A DNA stretch of 36,527 bases from Streptomyces murinus (GTDB taxonomy: Bacteria > Actinomycetota > Actinomycetes > Streptomycetales > Streptomycetaceae), in assembly GCF_002154555.1 (NCBI RefSeq), contig NZ_MUNF01000055.1, positions 1-36,527 of the forward strand. Direction: 5' to 3'. Below, piece by piece: positions 3,496 to 19,450 of this stretch (position 1 is its first letter; each line of letters opens with the position of its first letter). Below the pieces are notes generated by a model. The model ran no database searches and had not been told where the DNA came from. It saw only the letters and a program-made list of their open reading frames with translations. The position numbers were made by a program, and so were the translations under genes.

Positions 3496-4485
3496 TCAGG
3501 CCCGCACGGCGCGCAGCGTCCCGGTCTGCCGGCGCAGGACCAGGAAGCAGCCGGTGACCAGCAGCGCGGCGACGGCCAGGGTCAGTGCGGTGGTGGTGAG
3601 CTGGAGTCCCCAGAGGTGGGACTGCGGCTGGTAGGTGTTGTAGCGGCCGGCGAAGCGGTCGAACGCCGTCGCGCAGGACGCGACGGAGTCGCACGTCGGG
3701 GGCGGGACATGGGCGCCGGAGGCGGTCACCATGCCCTGGTCGACCACCATGCCCTTGCCGAGGAAGCCCTGGTCGACGGTGCTCAGCCGGGTCACCGCGG
3801 GCCACAGGTGCGGCATCGCCAGCTCGGTCAGCCAGCGCACGACGCCTATTGCCACCAGGCCGACCGCCAGCGCGGGCAGCGTCCGGCGCAGCAGCAGGCC
3901 CGCCAGGGCGCCGGCGGCGAGCCCGGCGAGGGCCATGGCCGCGAGGGTGGGGCCGCCCGCGTGGAAGGTGAAGCGGTCGTACCACTCCTTGGCGGTCTCG
4001 ATCCGGCCCTGGCTCGCGGTCCAGGCGCGGTGGTGCAGCCAGGCCAGCAGTCCGGTGCAGACGGTGACGCCGAGCGCCGGGACGGCGAGGCGCACGGCCA
4101 GCCAGCGGGCCGGGGAGGTGGCCTGGGTCCAGGCGAGCCGGGCGGTGCCGGACTCCAGCTCCCGGCCGGTCAGCGCGGCGCCCGCCCAGGCGGCCAGCAC
4201 GAAGGGCAGCACGTTCAGGGCGATGGTGGCGTAGTTGTAGTAGTCCTTGTAGCGCAGGATCGCGTTCTGGTCGTAGCTGCACCGCTCGCTCGTGGTGCAG
4301 CTCTCGTACTGCCGCCAGGCGTCCGCCGCCGCGTTCAGGAGCGGGCCGTCGAGGGCGAGCAGCAGGGCGATCAGGGCGATCCAGAGCACGGCCCAGGTGT
4401 AGAGCGCGGGCCGGTGCAGGCGCAGCAGCCAGCGGGTCTGCCGGGGCCGGTCGACGGGCGCGGCGGTCAGGGTCACGGCGCTCAC
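3496..4485 (-). CDS. ABC transporter permease
   Basis: A 329-residue integral membrane protein with about six hydrophobic segments: one near residues 25-45, one following an extracytoplasmic loop that carries a CTTSERC pair of cysteines, and four more toward the C-terminus, the last near 290-312. The sequence [16 protein letters not shown] is typical of ABC-2-like permeases, as is [12 protein letters not shown]. The GTG start at 4485 overlaps the TGA of the ATPase gene (GTGA), so the two are translationally coupled. With the ATPase and the YtrA-type regulator it forms a three-gene unit of the kind usually linked to export of, or response to, cell-envelope stress agents. The substrate cannot be told from sequence. 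Confidence 0.88.
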
Positions 4486-5354
4486 GCGGCACGCTCCTCG
4501 GTCGGGTTCGGTGCGCCGGCGTCCCGCAGATGGGCGAGGACCAGCTCTTCCAGGGAGGGCGCGGCGGTGCGCCAGTCGTCGGCGAGCGGTCCGGCCGGGC
4601 GGATCAGCGCGGTGAGCTGGCGTCCGGTGACACGGGACTCGACCACGGTGTGCGGGGCGAGGTCGGCGCTCGCGGCGCCGCTGACCCGCAGATGGGCGCC
4701 GAGCAGCTCGTCGATCTCGCCGGCCAGCCGGACCCGGCCGCCCGCGACCAGCAGCAGATGGTCGCAGGAGTCCTCCAGCTCCGCGATGACGTGCGAGGAC
4801 AGCACGATCGTGGTGCCGTGCATCGCGGCCTGGCCCATCAGCGTGCCCATCAGCTCGTGCCGGGCCAGTGGGTCCAGGTCGGCCATCGGCTCGTCCAGGA
4901 GCAGCAGCTCGGGCCGCTTGCCGAGGGCGAGGGCGAGCGCGACACGGGTGCGCTGGCCGCCGGAGAGGGTGCGGATCCGGGCGGTCGCGTCCAGCTCCTT
5001 GACGATGTGCCCGGCCAGCTCCGCGTCCCAGCGCCCGGGGTTGAGGTCGGCGCCCATGCGCAGCGTCTCGGCGACGGTGAGCTGCGGGTACAGCGGCTTG
5101 TCCTGGGCGACGTAGCCGACCCGGGGCCTGGCCTGCGCGGCGGTGGTGCCGAGGACGGTGAGGGCGCCCTCGGTGGGGCCCGTCAGTCCGGTGGCGAGGG
5201 CCAGCAGGGTGGACTTGCCCGCCCCGTTGGGGCCCACGACGGCGCACACGCGCCCGGTCGGCAGGTGGAACGCGCAGTCCCGCAGGGCCCAGCGGCCCCG
5301 GCGGCCGAACCGCTTGCCCAGAGCGTCGGCCCGCAGGGCCGTGTCGCTGCTCAT
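4482..5354 (-). CDS. ABC transporter ATP-binding protein
   Basis: A 290-residue nucleotide-binding protein that powers the adjacent permease. Walker A is GPNGAGKST at residues 41-49, the Q-loop is YVAQDKPLYP near 81-90, the signature LSGGQ is at 130-134, Walker B LLLLDEP at 150-156, and the switch His is in VLSSHVIAELEDS. After the ATPase core there is a roughly 75-residue C-terminal tail containing PHTVVESRVTGRQL, seen in ABC-2 exporter ATPases. The ATG overlaps the TGA of the regulator (ATGA) and its own TGA overlaps the permease GTG, so all three genes are coupled. Confidence 0.93.
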   Translation of the reverse strand: MSSDTALRADALGKRFGRRGRWALRDCAFHLPTGRVCAVVGPNGAGKSTLLALATGLTGPTEGALTVLGTTAAQARPRVGYVAQDKPLYPQLTVAETLRMGADLNPGRWDAELAGHIVKELDATARIRTLSGGQRTRVALALALGKRPELLLLDEPMADLDPLARHELMGTLMGQAAMHGTTIVLSSHVIAELEDSCDHLLLVAGGRVRLAGEIDELLGAHLRVSGAASADLAPHTVVESRVTGRQLTALIRPAGPLADDWRTAAPSLEELVLAHLRDAGAPNPTEERAA

Positions 5355-14962: not shown

Positions 14963-16246
14963 ATGACCGACCAGCCGTATCAGGGCGGCCCGTACGAGGG
15001 CTACGACCCCTACCAGCAGCAGCCCGCGCCGCCGCAGGACTGGCAGGGCACCGCATCGCAGGGCGCCCAGGGGGGCCCCGACCCGCAGTCCACCCAGACC
15101 TGGCAGGGCCAGACCTGGGAGACCCAGACCCACGCACCGGTCCAGGCGGCGGCGGAGGCGACGGCGTACCTGCCGCCGGTGACGGGGTATCCGCAGCAGG
15201 GGCAGTACCAGCAGGGCGAGGGGTTCGCGGGAGCGCAGGCCCAGCCGCAGTACCAGCAGGCCGGACAGCCCCAGCAGCAGTACCAGCAGATGGGCCACCC
15301 CGGCCCCCAGCCGATGGCCCAGCCGCAGCCGTACCCGCAGTCGGCGACGCCGATGCCGCAGCCGTACCCGACGGCGGGACCCGCGTCGGCCGCCCCCGCA
15401 GTCGCCCCCGCCGCAGGGGACCGCACCGCCGAGGAACCGTCCGGTGACGCGCCCTCCTACGGCCCCGCGACGCTCGCCGGCAACTCCCGGATCACCGACG
15501 CGCAGCGGGCCCGCCTGGAGGGCCGTTCGCCGATCATCGAGCCCGGGATGCAGCCGGCGCTGCTCACCGCGCTGCTCGGTCTGCTGCTGGCCGCGGCGGC
15601 GGGCCTCGGCTCGTACGCGCTGGCCGTCCCGCTGGTGCTGCTCCAGGCGGTGACGGCGGCGGGCTGGTTCCGGCTGAACGGCATGTGGCCGGCCCGGCAG
15701 GGCATCGCGCTGGCGTTCCTGGGCGGACTCGCGGCCGACGTGGCGGTACTGGCCGCGGGCCGCGGCAACGCGCCCGCCGCGATCCTTGGCACCCTCGGCG
15801 TCTGGGTCCTGCTCTCCCTGGTCCTCCAGCTCCGCTCGCACGCCTCGCCGGACGAGCGGATGTACGGCCTGATGGCGACGGTCGCCTCCGCGGCCCTGGC
15901 GATCCTGGCCACCGGCTACCTGGGCGCCGACCCGCACGCGGTCTCGGTGGGCGCGGCCGCGGTGGCGGTCGCCTCGCTGGCGCGTGCGCTGCCGCTGCCG
16001 ACCCCGGCGTCGGTCGTGGTCGCGCTGCTCGCCGCGGCGGGCGCGGGCATCGCGGTGGGCGGCATGACCGGCCTCGGCACGCAGGGCGCCCTGCTCGGTG
16101 CCCTGGCCGGCGCGTGCGCCCTGGTCGGCCACCGGGTCGCCGGCTACGACTACCCCTCCCGCTTCGTCCACTTCACCGCGGGCGTCGCCCTGCCGCTGTC
16201 GGCGGCGGCGCCGGTGGTGTGGGCGTTGGGACGGGTGCTGGGTTAG
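14963..16246 (+). CDS. Multi-pass membrane protein with Gln/Pro/Tyr-rich N-terminus
   Basis: A 427-residue protein. The first 190 or so residues are low-complexity, dominated by Gln, Pro, Tyr and Gly (repeated QPQPYPQ, YQQ, AQPQ units) and probably cytoplasmic and disordered. From about residue 195 it becomes strongly hydrophobic with some eight predicted membrane helices in a compact array separated by short loops. The ATG at 14963 has GGAGGGTG upstream. I recognise it as a conserved Streptomyces hypothetical at this spot but know no function. Neighbour genes give no clue beyond cotranscription with the MoaD-like carrier. Confidence 0.85.
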   Translation: MTDQPYQGGPYEGYDPYQQQPAPPQDWQGTASQGAQGGPDPQSTQTWQGQTWETQTHAPVQAAAEATAYLPPVTGYPQQGQYQQGEGFAGAQAQPQYQQAGQPQQQYQQMGHPGPQPMAQPQPYPQSATPMPQPYPTAGPASAAPAVAPAAGDRTAEEPSGDAPSYGPATLAGNSRITDAQRARLEGRSPIIEPGMQPALLTALLGLLLAAAAGLGSYALAVPLVLLQAVTAAGWFRLNGMWPARQGIALAFLGGLAADVAVLAAGRGNAPAAILGTLGVWVLLSLVLQLRSHASPDERMYGLMATVASAALAILATGYLGADPHAVSVGAAAVAVASLARALPLPTPASVVVALLAAAGAGIAVGGMTGLGTQGALLGALAGACALVGHRVAGYDYPSRFVHFTAGVALPLSAAAPVVWALGRVLG

Positions 16247-16272
16247 CCGCCGGTCGCGAACGGCTCCCGCTC

Positions 16273-17469
16273 TCATACGGCAGGCCGGACGGCCCACGCC
16301 TCATGCGCCGGGTCGTCCAGCCAGGCCCGTTGTCCGCCCCGGGCGTCGGCCGTGAGCCCGAACCGGGTCACGTCCGGCGATCCCCGGTCCTTCCACCACC
16401 GATAGGCATCCGTCACCTCGTCCCACAGACGCCGGGGCCCCGACTGCCAGACGGTGGCGTCCCGTTGTCCGTCGCGGAACAGTACGCAGGCCCAGGACAG
16501 GTCGGTCAGGCCGTAGAACCAGACGGGACGCGCGCCCTCGCGTTTGTCCGCCGCGGCCTGTCGGCACCGGGGCACCCGGAGGCCGAGCACGAAAGGGAGG
16601 TCCGTGAGGCGTCCCGTGACGAACTCCTCCTCGGTCAGGGAAGTCGTCGTCCGCTTCGCGTCGTCCAGAGGGCCGGCCGACAGATAGGCGTCATGGTCGA
16701 TCGCCGGGCCGCGCTGGGATCGGAGCTTCATGAACTCCACGGACCGGGTGAAGCGGCCCGTGGCCTTCCCGTCCCCGACCGTCAGGCGGGCCACGGCGTC
16801 CGCGTTGCCGTAGGCCGTGCCCCAGGGCGCGAGGATGATCCCGCCGGGGCGCGTCTGCCTGATCCAGGCGGTGGGCACTCGACGGATGCCGACCGTGGCG
16901 AGCACACGGTCGTACGGCGCCCCGCCCGGGTGCCCCTCGAACCCGTCCCCCACGATCACCTCCGGGTACAGCCCCTGGCGGCACAGCCGGTCGCGGGCAG
17001 CCGCGGAGACGGCCCGGTCCACGTCGACGGTCGTGACGTGGTGGCGTCCGAGGCGGTGCGTCAGCGCGCCGGCCGTCTCGCCAGTGCCCGTGCCCACGTC
17101 CAGGACGCGCATGCCGTCCTCGACCGCCAGGTCCTGGAGCAGGCCGTAGACCACGGACGGCATGGACGAGGAGCTGGTGGACAGCCTGCCCGGTTCCGTC
17201 CCCCGGTGCGCGCCGTCGTCCCACTGGATGACGACGGGGACGTTGCTGTCGGCCGCCGCGTACCAGCCGTCCGGATCATCCCGCCTGTCCACGGTGGCGC
17301 TCGCGCCGGTCGTCATGTCGTAGGGCCACATGAGGTCCGGGAGAAACGCGGCCCGGTCGACCGCCGCGAACGTCGGCGCCCAGTCCGAGGACAACACACC
17401 GGATTCCACGAGGATCCGCCCCAGCTCCTTGCGGCCGGGGCGGTCCATACGCAGGGAGTCGTACGTCAC
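16273..17469 (-). CDS. PIMT-like SAM methyltransferase with C-terminal extension, RiPP-associated type
   Basis: A 398-residue member of the protein-L-isoaspartate/D-aspartate O-methyltransferase superfamily. SAM motif I is VLDVGTGTG (122-130), followed by TTVDVD (146-151) and the motif YDRVLATVGIRRVP (186-199) with QTRPGGII. Just before motif I is the TSSSSMPSVV segment (98-107) seen in PIMT homologs of RiPP clusters. Beyond the catalytic fold (to about 250) there is an extra C-terminal region of about 150 residues that ordinary repair PIMTs (about 220 aa) lack. The GTG start at 17469 overlaps the stop of a 42-codon upstream peptide gene (GTGA). In known RiPP systems such enzymes methylate an Asp of a precursor, leading to aspartimide. 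That this one does so is inference from architecture and coupling. Confidence 0.85.
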   Translation of the reverse strand: MTYDSLRMDRPGRKELGRILVESGVLSSDWAPTFAAVDRAAFLPDLMWPYDMTTGASATVDRRDDPDGWYAAADSNVPVVIQWDDGAHRGTEPGRLSTSSSSMPSVVYGLLQDLAVEDGMRVLDVGTGTGETAGALTHRLGRHHVTTVDVDRAVSAAARDRLCRQGLYPEVIVGDGFEGHPGGAPYDRVLATVGIRRVPTAWIRQTRPGGIILAPWGTAYGNADAVARLTVGDGKATGRFTRSVEFMKLRSQRGPAIDHDAYLSAGPLDDAKRTTTSLTEEEFVTGRLTDLPFVLGLRVPRCRQAAADKREGARPVWFYGLTDLSWACVLFRDGQRDATVWQSGPRRLWDEVTDAYRWWKDRGSPDVTRFGLTADARGGQRAWLDDPAHEAWAVRPAV

Positions 17470-17594
17470 TTGCGGTGCTTCCCGTCTCCCTCCGGGCTCC
17501 CGCCGTCCGGGCTGGGCGGTTCCTGCGGCGGATTCCACGGCTGACCGGGGAGGTTGTCGTCGCCGTCGGCGTACAGATCGATGCGTGTCCTCAT
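17466..17594 (-). CDS. Short Asp/Pro-rich peptide, candidate RiPP precursor
   Basis: A 42-residue ORF ending in the GTGA overlap with the methyltransferase. The ATG at 17594 has AAGGAG eight bases upstream, one of the best ribosome-binding sites in the window. The peptide has a short N-terminal part MRTRIDLYADGDDNLPG, a Pro-rich middle (PWNPPQEPPSP), and a charged C-terminus (GDGKHRK). It has three Asp-Gly pairs (D10-G11, D30-G31, D37-G38) and one Asp-Asn (D13-N14), the sequences most prone to succinimide formation and the substrates of aspartimide-forming PIMTs. There are no Cys and few Ser/Thr, so lanthionine chemistry is unlikely. No homolog is recognised. A promoter-like pair of boxes precedes it. 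Confidence 0.7.
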   Translation of the reverse strand: MRTRIDLYADGDDNLPGQPWNPPQEPPSPDGGSPEGDGKHRK

Positions 17595-17631
17595 CGTCCG
17601 TTCTCCTTGCGTTCGTCACGGACTGCCGTGA

Positions 17632-17660
17632 TCGGTACGGTAGGAGACAAAGACACTCAA
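17632..17660 (-). promoter_or_regulatory. Candidate promoter for the peptide/methyltransferase pair
   Basis: On the minus strand, TTGAGT (17660-17655) and TACCGA (17637-17632) are separated by 17 bp, giving a leader of about 30 nt before the ATG. Confidence 0.5.
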
Positions 17661-17667
17661 CTCCCAT

Positions 17668-17696
17668 GTGATTGCACGAGGTTGCACCACAATCAC
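17668..17696. promoter_or_regulatory. Inverted repeat just upstream of the peptide promoter
   Basis: GTGATTG (17668-17674) and CAATCAC (17690-17696) are reverse complements 15 bp apart, with TTGCAC repeated directly inside. It sits about 8 bp upstream of the -35 box, overlapping the end of the XRE remnant. It may be an operator for a local XRE regulator or a leftover terminator. Confidence 0.4.
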
Positions 17697-17875
17697 CTGA
17701 GCAGTTCCACGGCGCCTTCGATCAGCGCGCGAGCCTTGGCCCCGTACACAGCCAGCTCGGCCAGCTCCGCGAACGTGTCGGCGTACAGGTCTACCTCACT
17801 CGGCTGGGTGATGGTGAGGTAGCCCGACACCAGCAGGCTGAGGAAGCCAGCGGACATCCTCACCTGCCTCGACAT
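17693..17875 (-). pseudogene. Remnant: C-terminal end of an XRE/DUF5753 regulator
   Basis: A 60-codon open stretch. The segment LTITQPSEVDLYADTFAELA and the following AVYGAKARALIEG closely match the last 45 residues of DUF5753-containing XRE regulators, where the protein ends soon after a helix of this kind. No helix-turn-helix or DUF5753 core precedes it; instead the DNA upstream, in another frame, encodes part of a DUF6879 protein. So most of the gene was lost in a deletion that joined two neighbours. Not expected to be functional. Confidence 0.6.
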
Positions 17876-18176: not shown

Positions 18177-18452
18177 TCACCGCCCGGCCTTGACCCCGCC
18201 CACGAAGGCCGCCCAGGCGGGGGCGCCGAAGAGGAGGGGGGTGCGGGTGGTGTCCTTGCTGTCGCGGACGGGGACGAGGGGGAGGTTGTCGGCGAACTCC
18301 AGGCAGGCGCCGCCATCCGAGTTGCTGTATGAGCTCTTGCGCCAGTCGGCGGTTTGGAGGAGGTCGTCAGAGACCTCGACGCAGGCGCCGCCTTCCGAGT
18401 TGCTGTAGCTGCTCTTACGCCACGTCAGGCTGCTCAGGTCGATGGCTCGCAT
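18177..18452 (-). CDS. DUF397 protein with a duplicated N-terminal motif
   Basis: A 91-residue DUF397 protein. The family motif WRKSSYSNxxGGxCxE occurs twice, at residues 11-26 and 37-52, then the usual C-terminus VRDSKDTTRTPLLFGAPAWAAFVGG. Most DUF397 proteins of about 60-70 aa have one copy. The ATG at 18452 has GGAGGAAG upstream and overlaps the end of the XRE gene by 19 bp, so the pair is coupled. XRE/DUF5753 with DUF397 is a known Streptomyces pairing (Scr1/Scr2 type), described as toxin-antitoxin-like or as a developmental and antibiotic regulator pair; DUF397 proteins bind and oppose the XRE partner. Activity of this pair is inferred. Confidence 0.9.
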   Translation of the reverse strand: MRAIDLSSLTWRKSSYSNSEGGACVEVSDDLLQTADWRKSSYSNSDGGACLEFADNLPLVPVRDSKDTTRTPLLFGAPAWAAFVGGVKAGR

Positions 18453-19276
18453 GGCGCTTCCTCCAGCATCTGCAAGATGAACTTCCGCGAGGCAGCAGGA
18501 TCCATGACCGCGTCGCGAATCGCATCATATCTGCGCTGTAGGTCCTCAACTGGGCCTGCTTCCTCGATGAGTTCACCGCTTACGACAGTCTCGACGTAGG
18601 CGACGGTGCGGCCATCCGGAAGTCGTAGGAATGTCACGGCGGTGTCCATCAGACCATGCAGTCCGGCGCCGAACGGCAGCACGTAGAAGGTGATGTTCGG
18701 GCGCTCGGAGAGCATCACCAGGTGCTCCAACTGCCGCCGCCACATCTGCGCATCTTGCAGAGAGTTCCGTAGCGCGGCCTCGGAAAGGATGACGCGAAAT
18801 GGTGAGGCGCATTCCCCGTCCAGCAGACTCTGGCGGTCCATGCGCGCGTCGGCCTGCTGTTCCACTTCATTGTGGGTGAGGCCACCCGTTGCGAGCAGTT
18901 CCAATGCGTACTCGCGGGTCTGAAGGAGACCGTGCAGGACGCTGCCGCCGTAGTGCCACATGCTGAGGGCTACGGCCTCCAGCGACATGTACTGCCGATA
19001 CCGCTCCTTGAACTGCGTCGGGTCCGCCTTCGCCAGCTCCCACAGCGTGAGCAACTTGTCGCCCGTGCCGTAGAACGTGTCCAGGGCCACCACGGTCTCC
19101 GGGCCCCCGAGCGACTGGCCCTTCTCCATCTTGCTGAAGAGGGTCGGGTCCCAGCCCACCTGCGCGGCCAACGCCCGGAAGGTCAGCTGCCGTTCCTCCC
19201 GGAGTAACCGCAACTCCTCGGCGAACCGAGCCCTCGGCTCCTGGCTGCGACCCGTGATCGCCCGTCGCTGCGGCAC
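18434..19276 (-). CDS. XRE family regulator with DUF5753 domain
   Basis: A 280-residue regulator: helix-turn-helix at about 15-70 (ARFAEELRLLREERQLTFRA, VGWDPTLFSKMEKGQSL) followed by the DUF5753 domain (about 90-275) with the family signature LLQTREYALELLA and VLPFGAGLHGLMD. I use the GTG at 19276 (VPQRRAITG), which follows GGGGAGGG; the open frame extends further to 19330 but without a ribosome-binding site, and across repeated DNA that may be an operator. The downstream DUF397 gene overlaps by 19 bp. Base composition here is slightly less GC-rich than the flanks, consistent with an accessory pair. Confidence 0.9.
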   Translation of the reverse strand: MPQRRAITGRSQEPRARFAEELRLLREERQLTFRALAAQVGWDPTLFSKMEKGQSLGGPETVVALDTFYGTGDKLLTLWELAKADPTQFKERYRQYMSLEAVALSMWHYGGSVLHGLLQTREYALELLATGGLTHNEVEQQADARMDRQSLLDGECASPFRVILSEAALRNSLQDAQMWRRQLEHLVMLSERPNITFYVLPFGAGLHGLMDTAVTFLRLPDGRTVAYVETVVSGELIEEAGPVEDLQRRYDAIRDAVMDPAASRKFILQMLEEAPCEPST

Positions 19277-19290
19277 CGCGCCCTCCCCGG

Positions 19291-19306
19291 TTTGTGGAAT
19301 TTGTGG
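19291..19306. repeat. Direct repeat TTTGTGG x2 upstream of the XRE gene
   Basis: TTTGTGG at 19291-19297 and 19300-19306, 9 bp start to start, about 15 bp upstream of the XRE start codon. Position suits an autoregulatory operator. Confidence 0.45.
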
Positions 19307-19450
19307 CACATGGCCCGCACGACCTGGCACAAGGCGCCGTTCCGCGCGTTTCCGCCTCCGTGCTGGGCCATTCTCGTATCAGGCCAGGAACACGCAGAGT
19401 AATACAACTGGCGCATTCCGTATAGAAGTTGGAGCAAAGGAGCGAAATCG

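What the first reader, a model, noticed from the sequence alone, without database searches (positions are those of the whole stretch)
16273..17594. Possible stand-alone aspartimide RiPP cassette: 42-aa peptide coupled to a PIMT-like methyltransferase
Seen directly: a 42-codon ORF (17466-17594) with an excellent ribosome-binding site ends in a GTGA overlap with a 398-aa PIMT-superfamily gene. The peptide has three Asp-Gly pairs and one Asp-Asn, is Pro-rich and lacks Cys. The enzyme has the SAM motif plus a C-terminal extension of about 150 residues not found in repair PIMTs. Established: PIMT homologs form aspartimides in some lasso peptides, lanthipeptides and graspetides, and in imiditides, where precursor and PIMT are the only genes. 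No lanthionine synthetase, ATP-grasp or lasso gene lies in the window. Inference: this is an imiditide-like or related system with a new precursor.
Basis: partly seen in the sequence, partly recalled or inferred. Interest (0 to 1): 0.88.

Follow-up and report, generated by a model that had tools for sequence, protein, structure and literature searches.

The report
Streptomyces two-gene imiditide (pamtide) cassette
A tiny gene and its partner enzyme gene in a Streptomyces chromosome very probably make a short peptide in which one aspartate is turned into a reactive ring; this peptide class was described in 2023, so this is a new member of it, though its repeated placement beside developmental-type regulators may be a new clue to its purpose.

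Summary
A 42-aa Asp/Gly/Pro-rich, Cys-free ORF (17466-17594, minus strand) with an AAGGAG site overlaps by GTGA a 398-aa PIMT-superfamily gene (16273-17469). The ORF is real: a small ORF of a recognisable type precedes 57 of 65 full-length relatives of the enzyme from other genomes, and it evolves as coding sequence (pN/pS 0.36 in frame; 1.55 and 2.14 in the other frames). The features of that class testable by sequence or fold are met. The enzyme is not the graspetide type: it scores under the TIGR04188 cut-off, while two paralogues in the same genome pass it and lie beside ATP-grasp ligases. Verdict: new member of a known kind. The likely modified residue is Asp30 (SPDG), inferred. One point not found in the two papers' main texts: these cassettes often sit beside XRE-DUF5753 regulators (16 of 37 loci with full flanks; 0 such genes in 400 kb of arbitrarily chosen genus DNA). 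The nearest relatives carry a 10-bp direct repeat upstream of the precursor. The window keeps it, although a deletion removed most of the adjacent one of two regulator genes.

The parts
17466..17594 (-). Type I pamtide / imiditide precursor, 42 aa; conserved Asp13 (D-x-x-P-G-x-P-W) and Asp30 (S-P-D-G), conserved basic tail GDGKHRK
16273..17469 (-). Peptide L-aspartyl O-methyltransferase (PAMT), GTG start, 398 aa; PIMT fold (to about residue 251) plus TmPIMT-like C-terminal domain with WKDRGSP
17603..17608 (-). Ribosome-binding site AAGGAG, 8 nt before the precursor ATG
   Evidence: read
17671..17687 (-). Putative regulator operator: tandem 10-bp direct repeat GTGCAACCTC/GTGCAAT
   Evidence: function inferred
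17696..17833 (-). Remnant (last 46 of 286 residues, 83% identical to L009) of a second XRE-DUF5753 regulator gene that is present whole directly upstream of the cassette in L009-L011
17838..18089 (-). Remnant of a DUF6879 gene (N-terminal part only; profile 3-110 of 167)
18177..18452 (-). DUF397 (BldB-type) small protein, two matched stretches
18434..19330 (-). First XRE HTH_31-DUF5753 regulator, intact

Best explanation
This is a type I pamtide (imiditide) cassette. The two genes are probably co-transcribed and translationally coupled (GTGA). The 42-aa linear precursor is probably held by its basic C-terminal tail (GKHRK) on the enzyme's C-terminal domain. The PIMT-fold domain would methylate one Asp side chain with SAM (+14 Da), most likely Asp30 in SPDG. 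The amide of Gly31 would then displace methanol to give an aspartimide (-18 Da relative to unmodified), which partly opens to isoAsp/Asp. Shown here: conserved precursor under purifying selection, predicted enzyme fold, motifs, gene pairing. Inferred from SpaA/SpaM and NmaA/NmaM in the literature: the chemistry and tail recognition. Inferred: the site, and control by an XRE-DUF5753 regulator through the 10-bp direct repeat.
For: A precursor of type A, A2, B, C or D upstream of 57 of 65 full-length external relatives. pN/pS 0.36 in frame against 1.55 and 2.14. Asp at the P-D site in 50 of 51 precursors and at D-x-x-P-G in 49 of 51. Length and composition as published for type I (about 45 aa; Gly 17.3, Pro 16.8, Asp 10.2%; PMC10787088 section 2.3): here median 44 aa, 20.1/21.9/10.2% (start codons assigned by a rule). 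Model pLDDT 93.3, pTM 0.91. The top Foldseek match is 1dl5, E 1.3e-19, a PIMT with a C-terminal domain; VIA-align covers model 11-388 with Z 27.2, rmsd 6.6, 310 aligned. WxxxGxP present. A Streptomyces sparsogenes genome, the species of characterised SpaA/SpaM, holds two relatives (L019, enzyme 70% identical, tail GDGTHRK; L034, 58%).
Against: No chemistry, expression or mass data were obtained. Two Asp positions are conserved, so the site is not settled; L018 has Asn at the P-D site. Of the 65, six relatives have no recognisable precursor (L021, L023, L025, L029, L074, L077), L012 has it broken by a frame change, and L027 is cut off upstream; L068, counted among the 57, has no assigned start codon. 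No exporter was seen beside the pair; an ABC ATPase lies about 11 kb away at 4482-5354. I could not confirm from text that L019 is SpaA/SpaM itself.
Confidence: 0.9

Rival explanations
1. Tailoring methyltransferase of a graspetide cluster whose ATP-grasp ligase is elsewhere (graspimiditide type).
For: The best NCBIfam model is TIGR04188, ATP-grasp peptide maturase system methyltransferase (280.9 bits), and the genome holds three ATP-grasp ligases of TIGR04187, one of which (C535) is on a contig without a match to the window enzyme.
Against: 280.9 bits is under the cut-off of 380, while paralogues at C170 (486) and C296 (429) pass it and lie directly beside two of the three ligases. None of the three is on the window's contig, which is the 36.5-kb window itself.
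Confidence: 0.04
2. A protein-repair PIMT with a chance small ORF upstream.
For: PIMT fold.
Against: The small ORF is conserved at the protein level and paired with the enzyme across many loci; the enzyme has the extra C-terminal domain and WxxxGxP, and scores well below the repair equivalog cut-offs (75.6 against 188 bits for NF001453).
Confidence: 0.02
3. The peptide is not a product but a small regulatory or chaperone-like partner of a methyltransferase that acts on another cellular protein.
For: No exporter was seen beside the pair. PMC10787088 reports PAMTs next to FHA-domain proteins with Pro/Gly/Asp-rich regions that may be protein substrates.
Against: SpaA and NmaA, of the same class, are themselves modified (PMC10787088 section 2.5; PMC13001092 section 10).
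Confidence: 0.04

Closest known systems
Type I pamtides / imiditides (SpaA-SpaM of Streptomyces sparsogenes; NmaA-NmaM of Nonomuraea maritima)
   Same: Precursor plus PAMT only; short linear Gly/Pro/Asp-rich precursor without Cys motif; conserved Asp; conserved charged C-terminal tail; PAMT with extra C-terminal domain and WxxxGxP.
   Different: No difference in kind was found. The enzyme is 70% identical to one S. sparsogenes enzyme (L019). The residue after the candidate Asp is Gly here and His in NmaA (PMC13001092). Flanking regulator genes are not mentioned in the two papers' main texts.
Type II pamtides / cysimiditides (FcaA-FcaM)
   Same: Precursor plus PAMT pair.
   Different: Those precursors carry a tetracysteine zinc-ribbon; this one has no Cys.
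Graspimiditide methyltransferases (TIGR04188)
   Same: Same enzyme superfamily; two such paralogues exist in this genome.
   Different: No TIGR04187 ligase beside the gene; score below the TIGR04188 cut-off.
WhiJ/BldB-type regulator loci (XRE protein with DUF397 protein)
   Same: Intact XRE-DUF5753 and DUF397 genes upstream; a 10-bp-period direct repeat upstream of the precursor, like the 10-bp repeats bound by WhiJ9 (consensus CGXXCTCAAC; PMC10294661 passages). That WhiJ proteins are of the XRE-DUF5753 kind is recalled, not shown by a call.
   Different: WhiJ9's known target iosA encodes a 15-kDa protein, not a pamtide; the repeat resembles the WhiJ9 site only loosely in sequence.

Membership tests
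Type I pamtides / imiditides | Precursor of about 45 aa rich in Gly, Pro, Asp next to a PAMT gene | tested here: met
   42 aa; Gly 14.3, Pro 19.0, Asp 14.3%; GTGA overlap
[quoted passage not shown]
   P-D site Asp in 50 of 51, D-x-x-P-G Asp in 49 of 51 precursors
Type I pamtides / imiditides | PIMT-fold enzyme with extra C-terminal domain and WXXXGXP | tested here: met
   (fold predicted, not solved)
Type I pamtides / imiditides | No primary modification enzyme of another RiPP class in the cluster | tested here: met
   33 of the 34 likely window genes scanned with Pfam and one with NCBIfam, none such; the three TIGR04187 ligases are on contigs C170, C296 and C535
Type I pamtides / imiditides | Conserved charged C-terminal precursor residues | tested here: met
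   basic tail in 27 of 51 precursors, the window among them; the B and C types differ
Type I pamtides / imiditides | Asp converted to methyl ester, aspartimide, isoAsp by the enzyme alone | not testable with these tools
   needs co-expression and mass spectrometry
Graspetide methyltransferase (TIGR04188) | Score at or above the curated cut-off of 380 bits | tested here: not met
   280.9 bits
Graspetide methyltransferase (TIGR04188) | ATP-grasp ligase in the same cluster | tested here: not met
   scans
Type II pamtides / cysimiditides | Two CXXCXGXG motifs in the precursor | tested here: not met
   no Cys in the peptide
Canonical repair PIMT | Score above a repair PIMT equivalog cut-off | tested here: not met
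   NF001453 75.6 of 188, TIGR00080 58.5 of 159

The most novel reading that the evidence does not exclude
Pamtides are an output of WhiJ/BldB-type regulator modules in Streptomyces: an XRE-DUF5753 protein (with DUF6879 or DUF397 as co-factor) binds 10-bp direct repeats in front of the precursor and switches the cassette during development or stress, so that the aspartimide peptide acts as an endogenous signal or developmental effector rather than an exported antibiotic. In this genome the adjacent regulator gene has been deleted down to its last 46 codons, while a second XRE-DUF5753/DUF397 pair and the putative operator remain.
Probability: 0.3. Interest if true: 0.68.

Novelty: new member of a known kind. 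Interest (0 to 1): 0.38.

Why it matters
The 2026 review names the link from aspartimide RiPPs to biological function as the bigger challenge (PMC13001092 conclusion, passages seen). The repeated neighbourhood of these cassettes with XRE-DUF5753 regulators, plus a candidate operator, offers a direct way in: delete or overexpress the regulator and watch precursor transcription and colony development. The new precursor itself is one more substrate, with an Asp-Gly candidate site and a conserved basic tail, for enzyme work.

Tried and rejected
Tail/enzyme co-evolution: I looked for acidic C-terminal-domain positions that track the basic precursor tail. Position 365 looked promising (acidic in 65% of 23 type A rows, 11% of 28 B/C/D rows), but the tree allows only 2 independent pairs on supported branches, and mean net charge of residues 255-397 does not separate type A (-4.6) from B (-4.1) or C (-4.8); type D is more negative (-8.1). 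Dropped as inconclusive; it gives no support for tail recognition here.

Promoter and terminator consensus scan of 16150-17850: 0 of each; uninformative for Streptomyces.

Type labels on the tree: precursor types cluster (15 changes, shuffled mean 37.2, none of 200 as low), but only D is a single clade; A, C and B need 7, 6 and 2 changes. So precursor type is not a strict enzyme lineage marker.

The operator pattern was written after seeing related sequences, so its count (7 of 51) is partly circular. The motif-free repeat test: 8 of 22 precursor loci with an XRE nearby reach 8/10 self-match at lag 10, and 2 of 29 others do, against 3.9% of 3000 random 200-nt stretches of the background. Of those 29, three (L001 = the window, L002, L006) had not been scored for XRE at all; the two positives are the window, which does have XRE genes, and L013, whose contig ends about 250 nt upstream. 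Related loci are not independent in any of these counts, flank lengths differ (about 3 kb or 1.5 kb), and none of the B and C type loci reached 8/10.

Labels for type D and for L073 (A2) were assigned by eye, not by a model. Partial or decayed loci (L045-L051 and L055, L048 being split in two frames) were left out of the 65; L056, L057 and L067 were dropped as duplicates of L010, L013 and L031; the window's own genome was left out of the 65. The 37 loci do include decayed loci with long flanks. The 51 precursors include three of the window's genome (L001, L002, L006) and L048, and exclude type D and L073.

The 20 background stretches were picked by me at round coordinates in single- or few-contig genomes, not drawn at random.

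A search of the whole class of Actinomycetes, and of metagenomes, was not made.

Full report
OBSERVATION. The minus-strand ORF 17466-17594 encodes MRTRIDLYADGDDNLPGQPWNPPQEPPSPDGGSPEGDGKHRK. AAGGAG lies 8 nt before its ATG, and its stop overlaps the GTG start of the next gene as GTGA. That gene, 16273-17469, encodes 398 aa including the start: Pfam PCMT to residue 251 (E 6.8e-23), GTGTG at 125 and WKDRGSP at 358, so about 146 residues of extension.

IS THE SMALL ORF A GENE? I fetched 47 relatives of the enzyme from public genomes (identity 51-78%) and searched 150 genus genomes (144 of 150 have some match, 29 loci fetched). After removing three duplicates, the window's own genome and partial or decayed loci, 65 full-length external relatives remained. 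Of these, 57 have a small ORF of a recognised type just upstream: type A (basic tail, 26), A2 (1), B (PSPDGGPK-like, 9), C (PTPDGGPGVPNPP-like, 12), D (DDSDSGNKHGGGG..., 9); one of the 57, L068, has no assigned start codon. The eight others are L012 (frame broken), L027 (contig end; its last upstream codons read as a C-type tail), and L021, L023, L025, L029, L074, L077 (nothing recognisable). Over 15 gap-free type A precursors pN/pS is 0.36, against 1.55 and 2.14 in the shifted frames; 1149 of 2157 pairwise differences fall on third positions.

WHAT IT IS. The literature held here already describes this class. PMC10787088 (abstract and sections 2.2-2.5 read) defines type I pamtides: about 45-aa Gly/Pro/Asp-rich precursors next to a PAMT as sole modifying enzyme; SpaA/SpaM of S. 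sparsogenes gives +14, -18 and 0 Da species and needs the precursor's C-terminal residues. PMC13001092 (abstract and sections 10-11 read; other passages by search) equates these with imiditides, gives 1414 type I members, and states the WXXXGXP motif and charge-based recognition. The present pair matches on each feature I could test (membership table). S. sparsogenes ATCC 25498 carries two relatives, L019 (enzyme 70% identical, tail GDGTHRK) and L034 (58%); I could not verify from text which one, if either, is SpaA.

NOT A GRASPETIDE ENZYME. The best curated model is TIGR04188, but at 280.9 bits it is under the cut-off of 380. In the same genome the paralogues at C170 and C296 score 486 and 429 and lie next to two of three ATP-grasp ligases. 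The window's gene and its 55%-identical paralogue at C745 (267 bits) do not pass, and instead have pamtide-type precursors. Of the 34 likely genes of the window, 33 were scanned with Pfam and the other with NCBIfam; none is an ATP-grasp, LanC-like or lasso enzyme.

ENZYME FOLD. The AlphaFold2 model from 58 sequences has mean pLDDT 93.3, pTM 0.91. Foldseek's first match is 1dl5, T. maritima PIMT (E 1.3e-19), which has a C-terminal domain (PMC13001092). VIA-align aligns 310 residues over model 11-388 at Z 27.2 with rmsd 6.6; the other PIMT chains in that list align only to about residue 246-273. Profile search gives 1dl5 at 8.3e-29. The Ser-rich loop of the profile (tsSasmPs) aligns with the YSTSSQPS loop of 1dl5.

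SITE AND MECHANISM. Asp at the P-D site is present in 50 of 51 precursors (48 followed by Gly, one by Ser, one by Asp; L018 has Asn-Gly), and Asp at D-x-x-P-G in 49 of 51 (L063 Glu, L069 lacks the motif). I favour Asp30 (about 0.7). Gly after Asp suits imide closure. The 2026 review calls a His after the modified Asp in NmaA uncommon. NmaA keeps aspartimidylation, at lower level, when its first 20 residues are removed, but is significantly affected by loss of its last 10, which suggests a site towards the C-terminus. L069 keeps only the P-D site. The chemistry itself is inferred from SpaA and NmaA.

REGULATOR CONTEXT. Upstream of the cassette lie an intact XRE HTH_31-DUF5753 gene, a DUF397 gene and a DUF6879 fragment, reminiscent of the WhiJ/BldB pairs of PMC10294661 (passages read; that WhiJ is of the DUF5753 kind is recalled). 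Compared with L009, L010 and L011 the window lacks about 0.94 kb: window 17842/17832 corresponds to L009 1661/2597. This removed the later part of DUF6879 and 240 of 286 residues of a second XRE-DUF5753 gene that in those loci ends about 120 nt before the precursor. A mis-assembly cannot be excluded. Among 37 relatives with about 3 kb on both sides, 16 have an XRE-DUF5753 gene (20 genes in 263.7 kb), in types A, B and C and on both strands; 0 were found in 400 kb from 20 arbitrarily chosen same-genus stretches with the same models. PF19054 counts in 13 same-genus genomes (290 matches in about 108 Mb; my arithmetic) predict about 0.7 in 263.7 kb. The loci are related to each other, so the excess is not 20 independent events. 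Among the nine type D loci there was one moderate hit (L076, 1.5e-13) and none under 1e-20, with flanks of only about 1.5 kb.

CANDIDATE OPERATOR. GTGCAACCTCGTGCAAT (17687-17671) starts 93 nt before the precursor start, just after the truncated regulator's stop. The pattern occurs upstream in 7 of 51 precursor loci and once in 800 kb of strand sequence. Without a preset motif, 8 of 22 precursor loci with an XRE nearby show an 8/10 or better repeat at lag 10, as do 2 of the 29 others (background 3.9%); those two are the window, not scored for XRE in that test but possessing such genes, and L013, cut off upstream. L041, not used to define the motif, gives CGCAATCACC/CGCAATCGCC. WhiJ9 binds 10-bp direct repeats, CGXXCTCAAC; the likeness is in architecture, only loosely in sequence. 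Main texts of PMC10787088 and PMC13001092 contain no 'DUF397' and no 'regulator'. PMC13097080 notes DUF397/DUF5753 near graspetide groups 11 and 13 (passage), and PMC8939145 lists HTH-DUF5753 among genes linked to ATP-grasp loci (passage), so the link has precedent in graspetides. Searches for 'pamtide' (2 papers), 'imiditide' (5 papers), 'DUF6879' (0) and a combined search showed no report of the link for pamtides in their listings; supplements and closed papers were not searchable.

VERDICT. Real, correctly read, but a new member of a described class. The regulator neighbourhood is the part worth a bench test.

Noticed in passing
L002 (G000:C745:4359-5438) and L006 (G000:C694:660-821): Second pamtide cassette in the same genome (type B peptide MKVTAWQVADDKDKVPGTPWPGPIVPPSPDGGPKVWIFS, enzyme 55% identical) and a third, partial one.
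   Followed up: partly
L075, L076, L078-L084, upstream of the enzyme: A quite different conserved precursor (type D, for example ...NPQDDSDSGNKHGGGGSDEGGNTNDGQGPADGK) without the Pro motifs, paired with enzymes 43-46% identical that form one clade (99/97). Whether it is in the published supplement is unknown.
   Followed up: partly
window 17832-17842: Deletion junction relative to L009-L011 that leaves DUF6879 and XRE-DUF5753 gene remnants beside the cassette.
   Followed up: yes
L012, L029, L045, L046: Broken or lost parts: frame change in the L012 precursor, only a very short ORF before the L029 enzyme, an enzyme remnant in L045, and in L046 an apparent fusion of precursor start to enzyme; the cassette seems to decay often.
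   Followed up: partly
L062, upstream of the enzyme: Two precursor-like ORFs, one with PHPDS and one with PAPDG.
   Followed up: no
G121:C1:155765-156928 and 172449-173612: Two enzyme copies of equal score in opposite orientation about 16 kb apart on a 185-kb contig.
   Followed up: no
plasmid records: 18 plasmid records, 10 of them named Streptomyces, carry relatives of the enzyme (listed identities up to 55%), so relatives are also plasmid-borne.
   Followed up: no
G000:C577:1021-1734 (L005): Another PIMT-family paralogue, 266 bits to TIGR04188, below the cut-off and with no precursor recognised by my pattern; role unknown.
   Followed up: no
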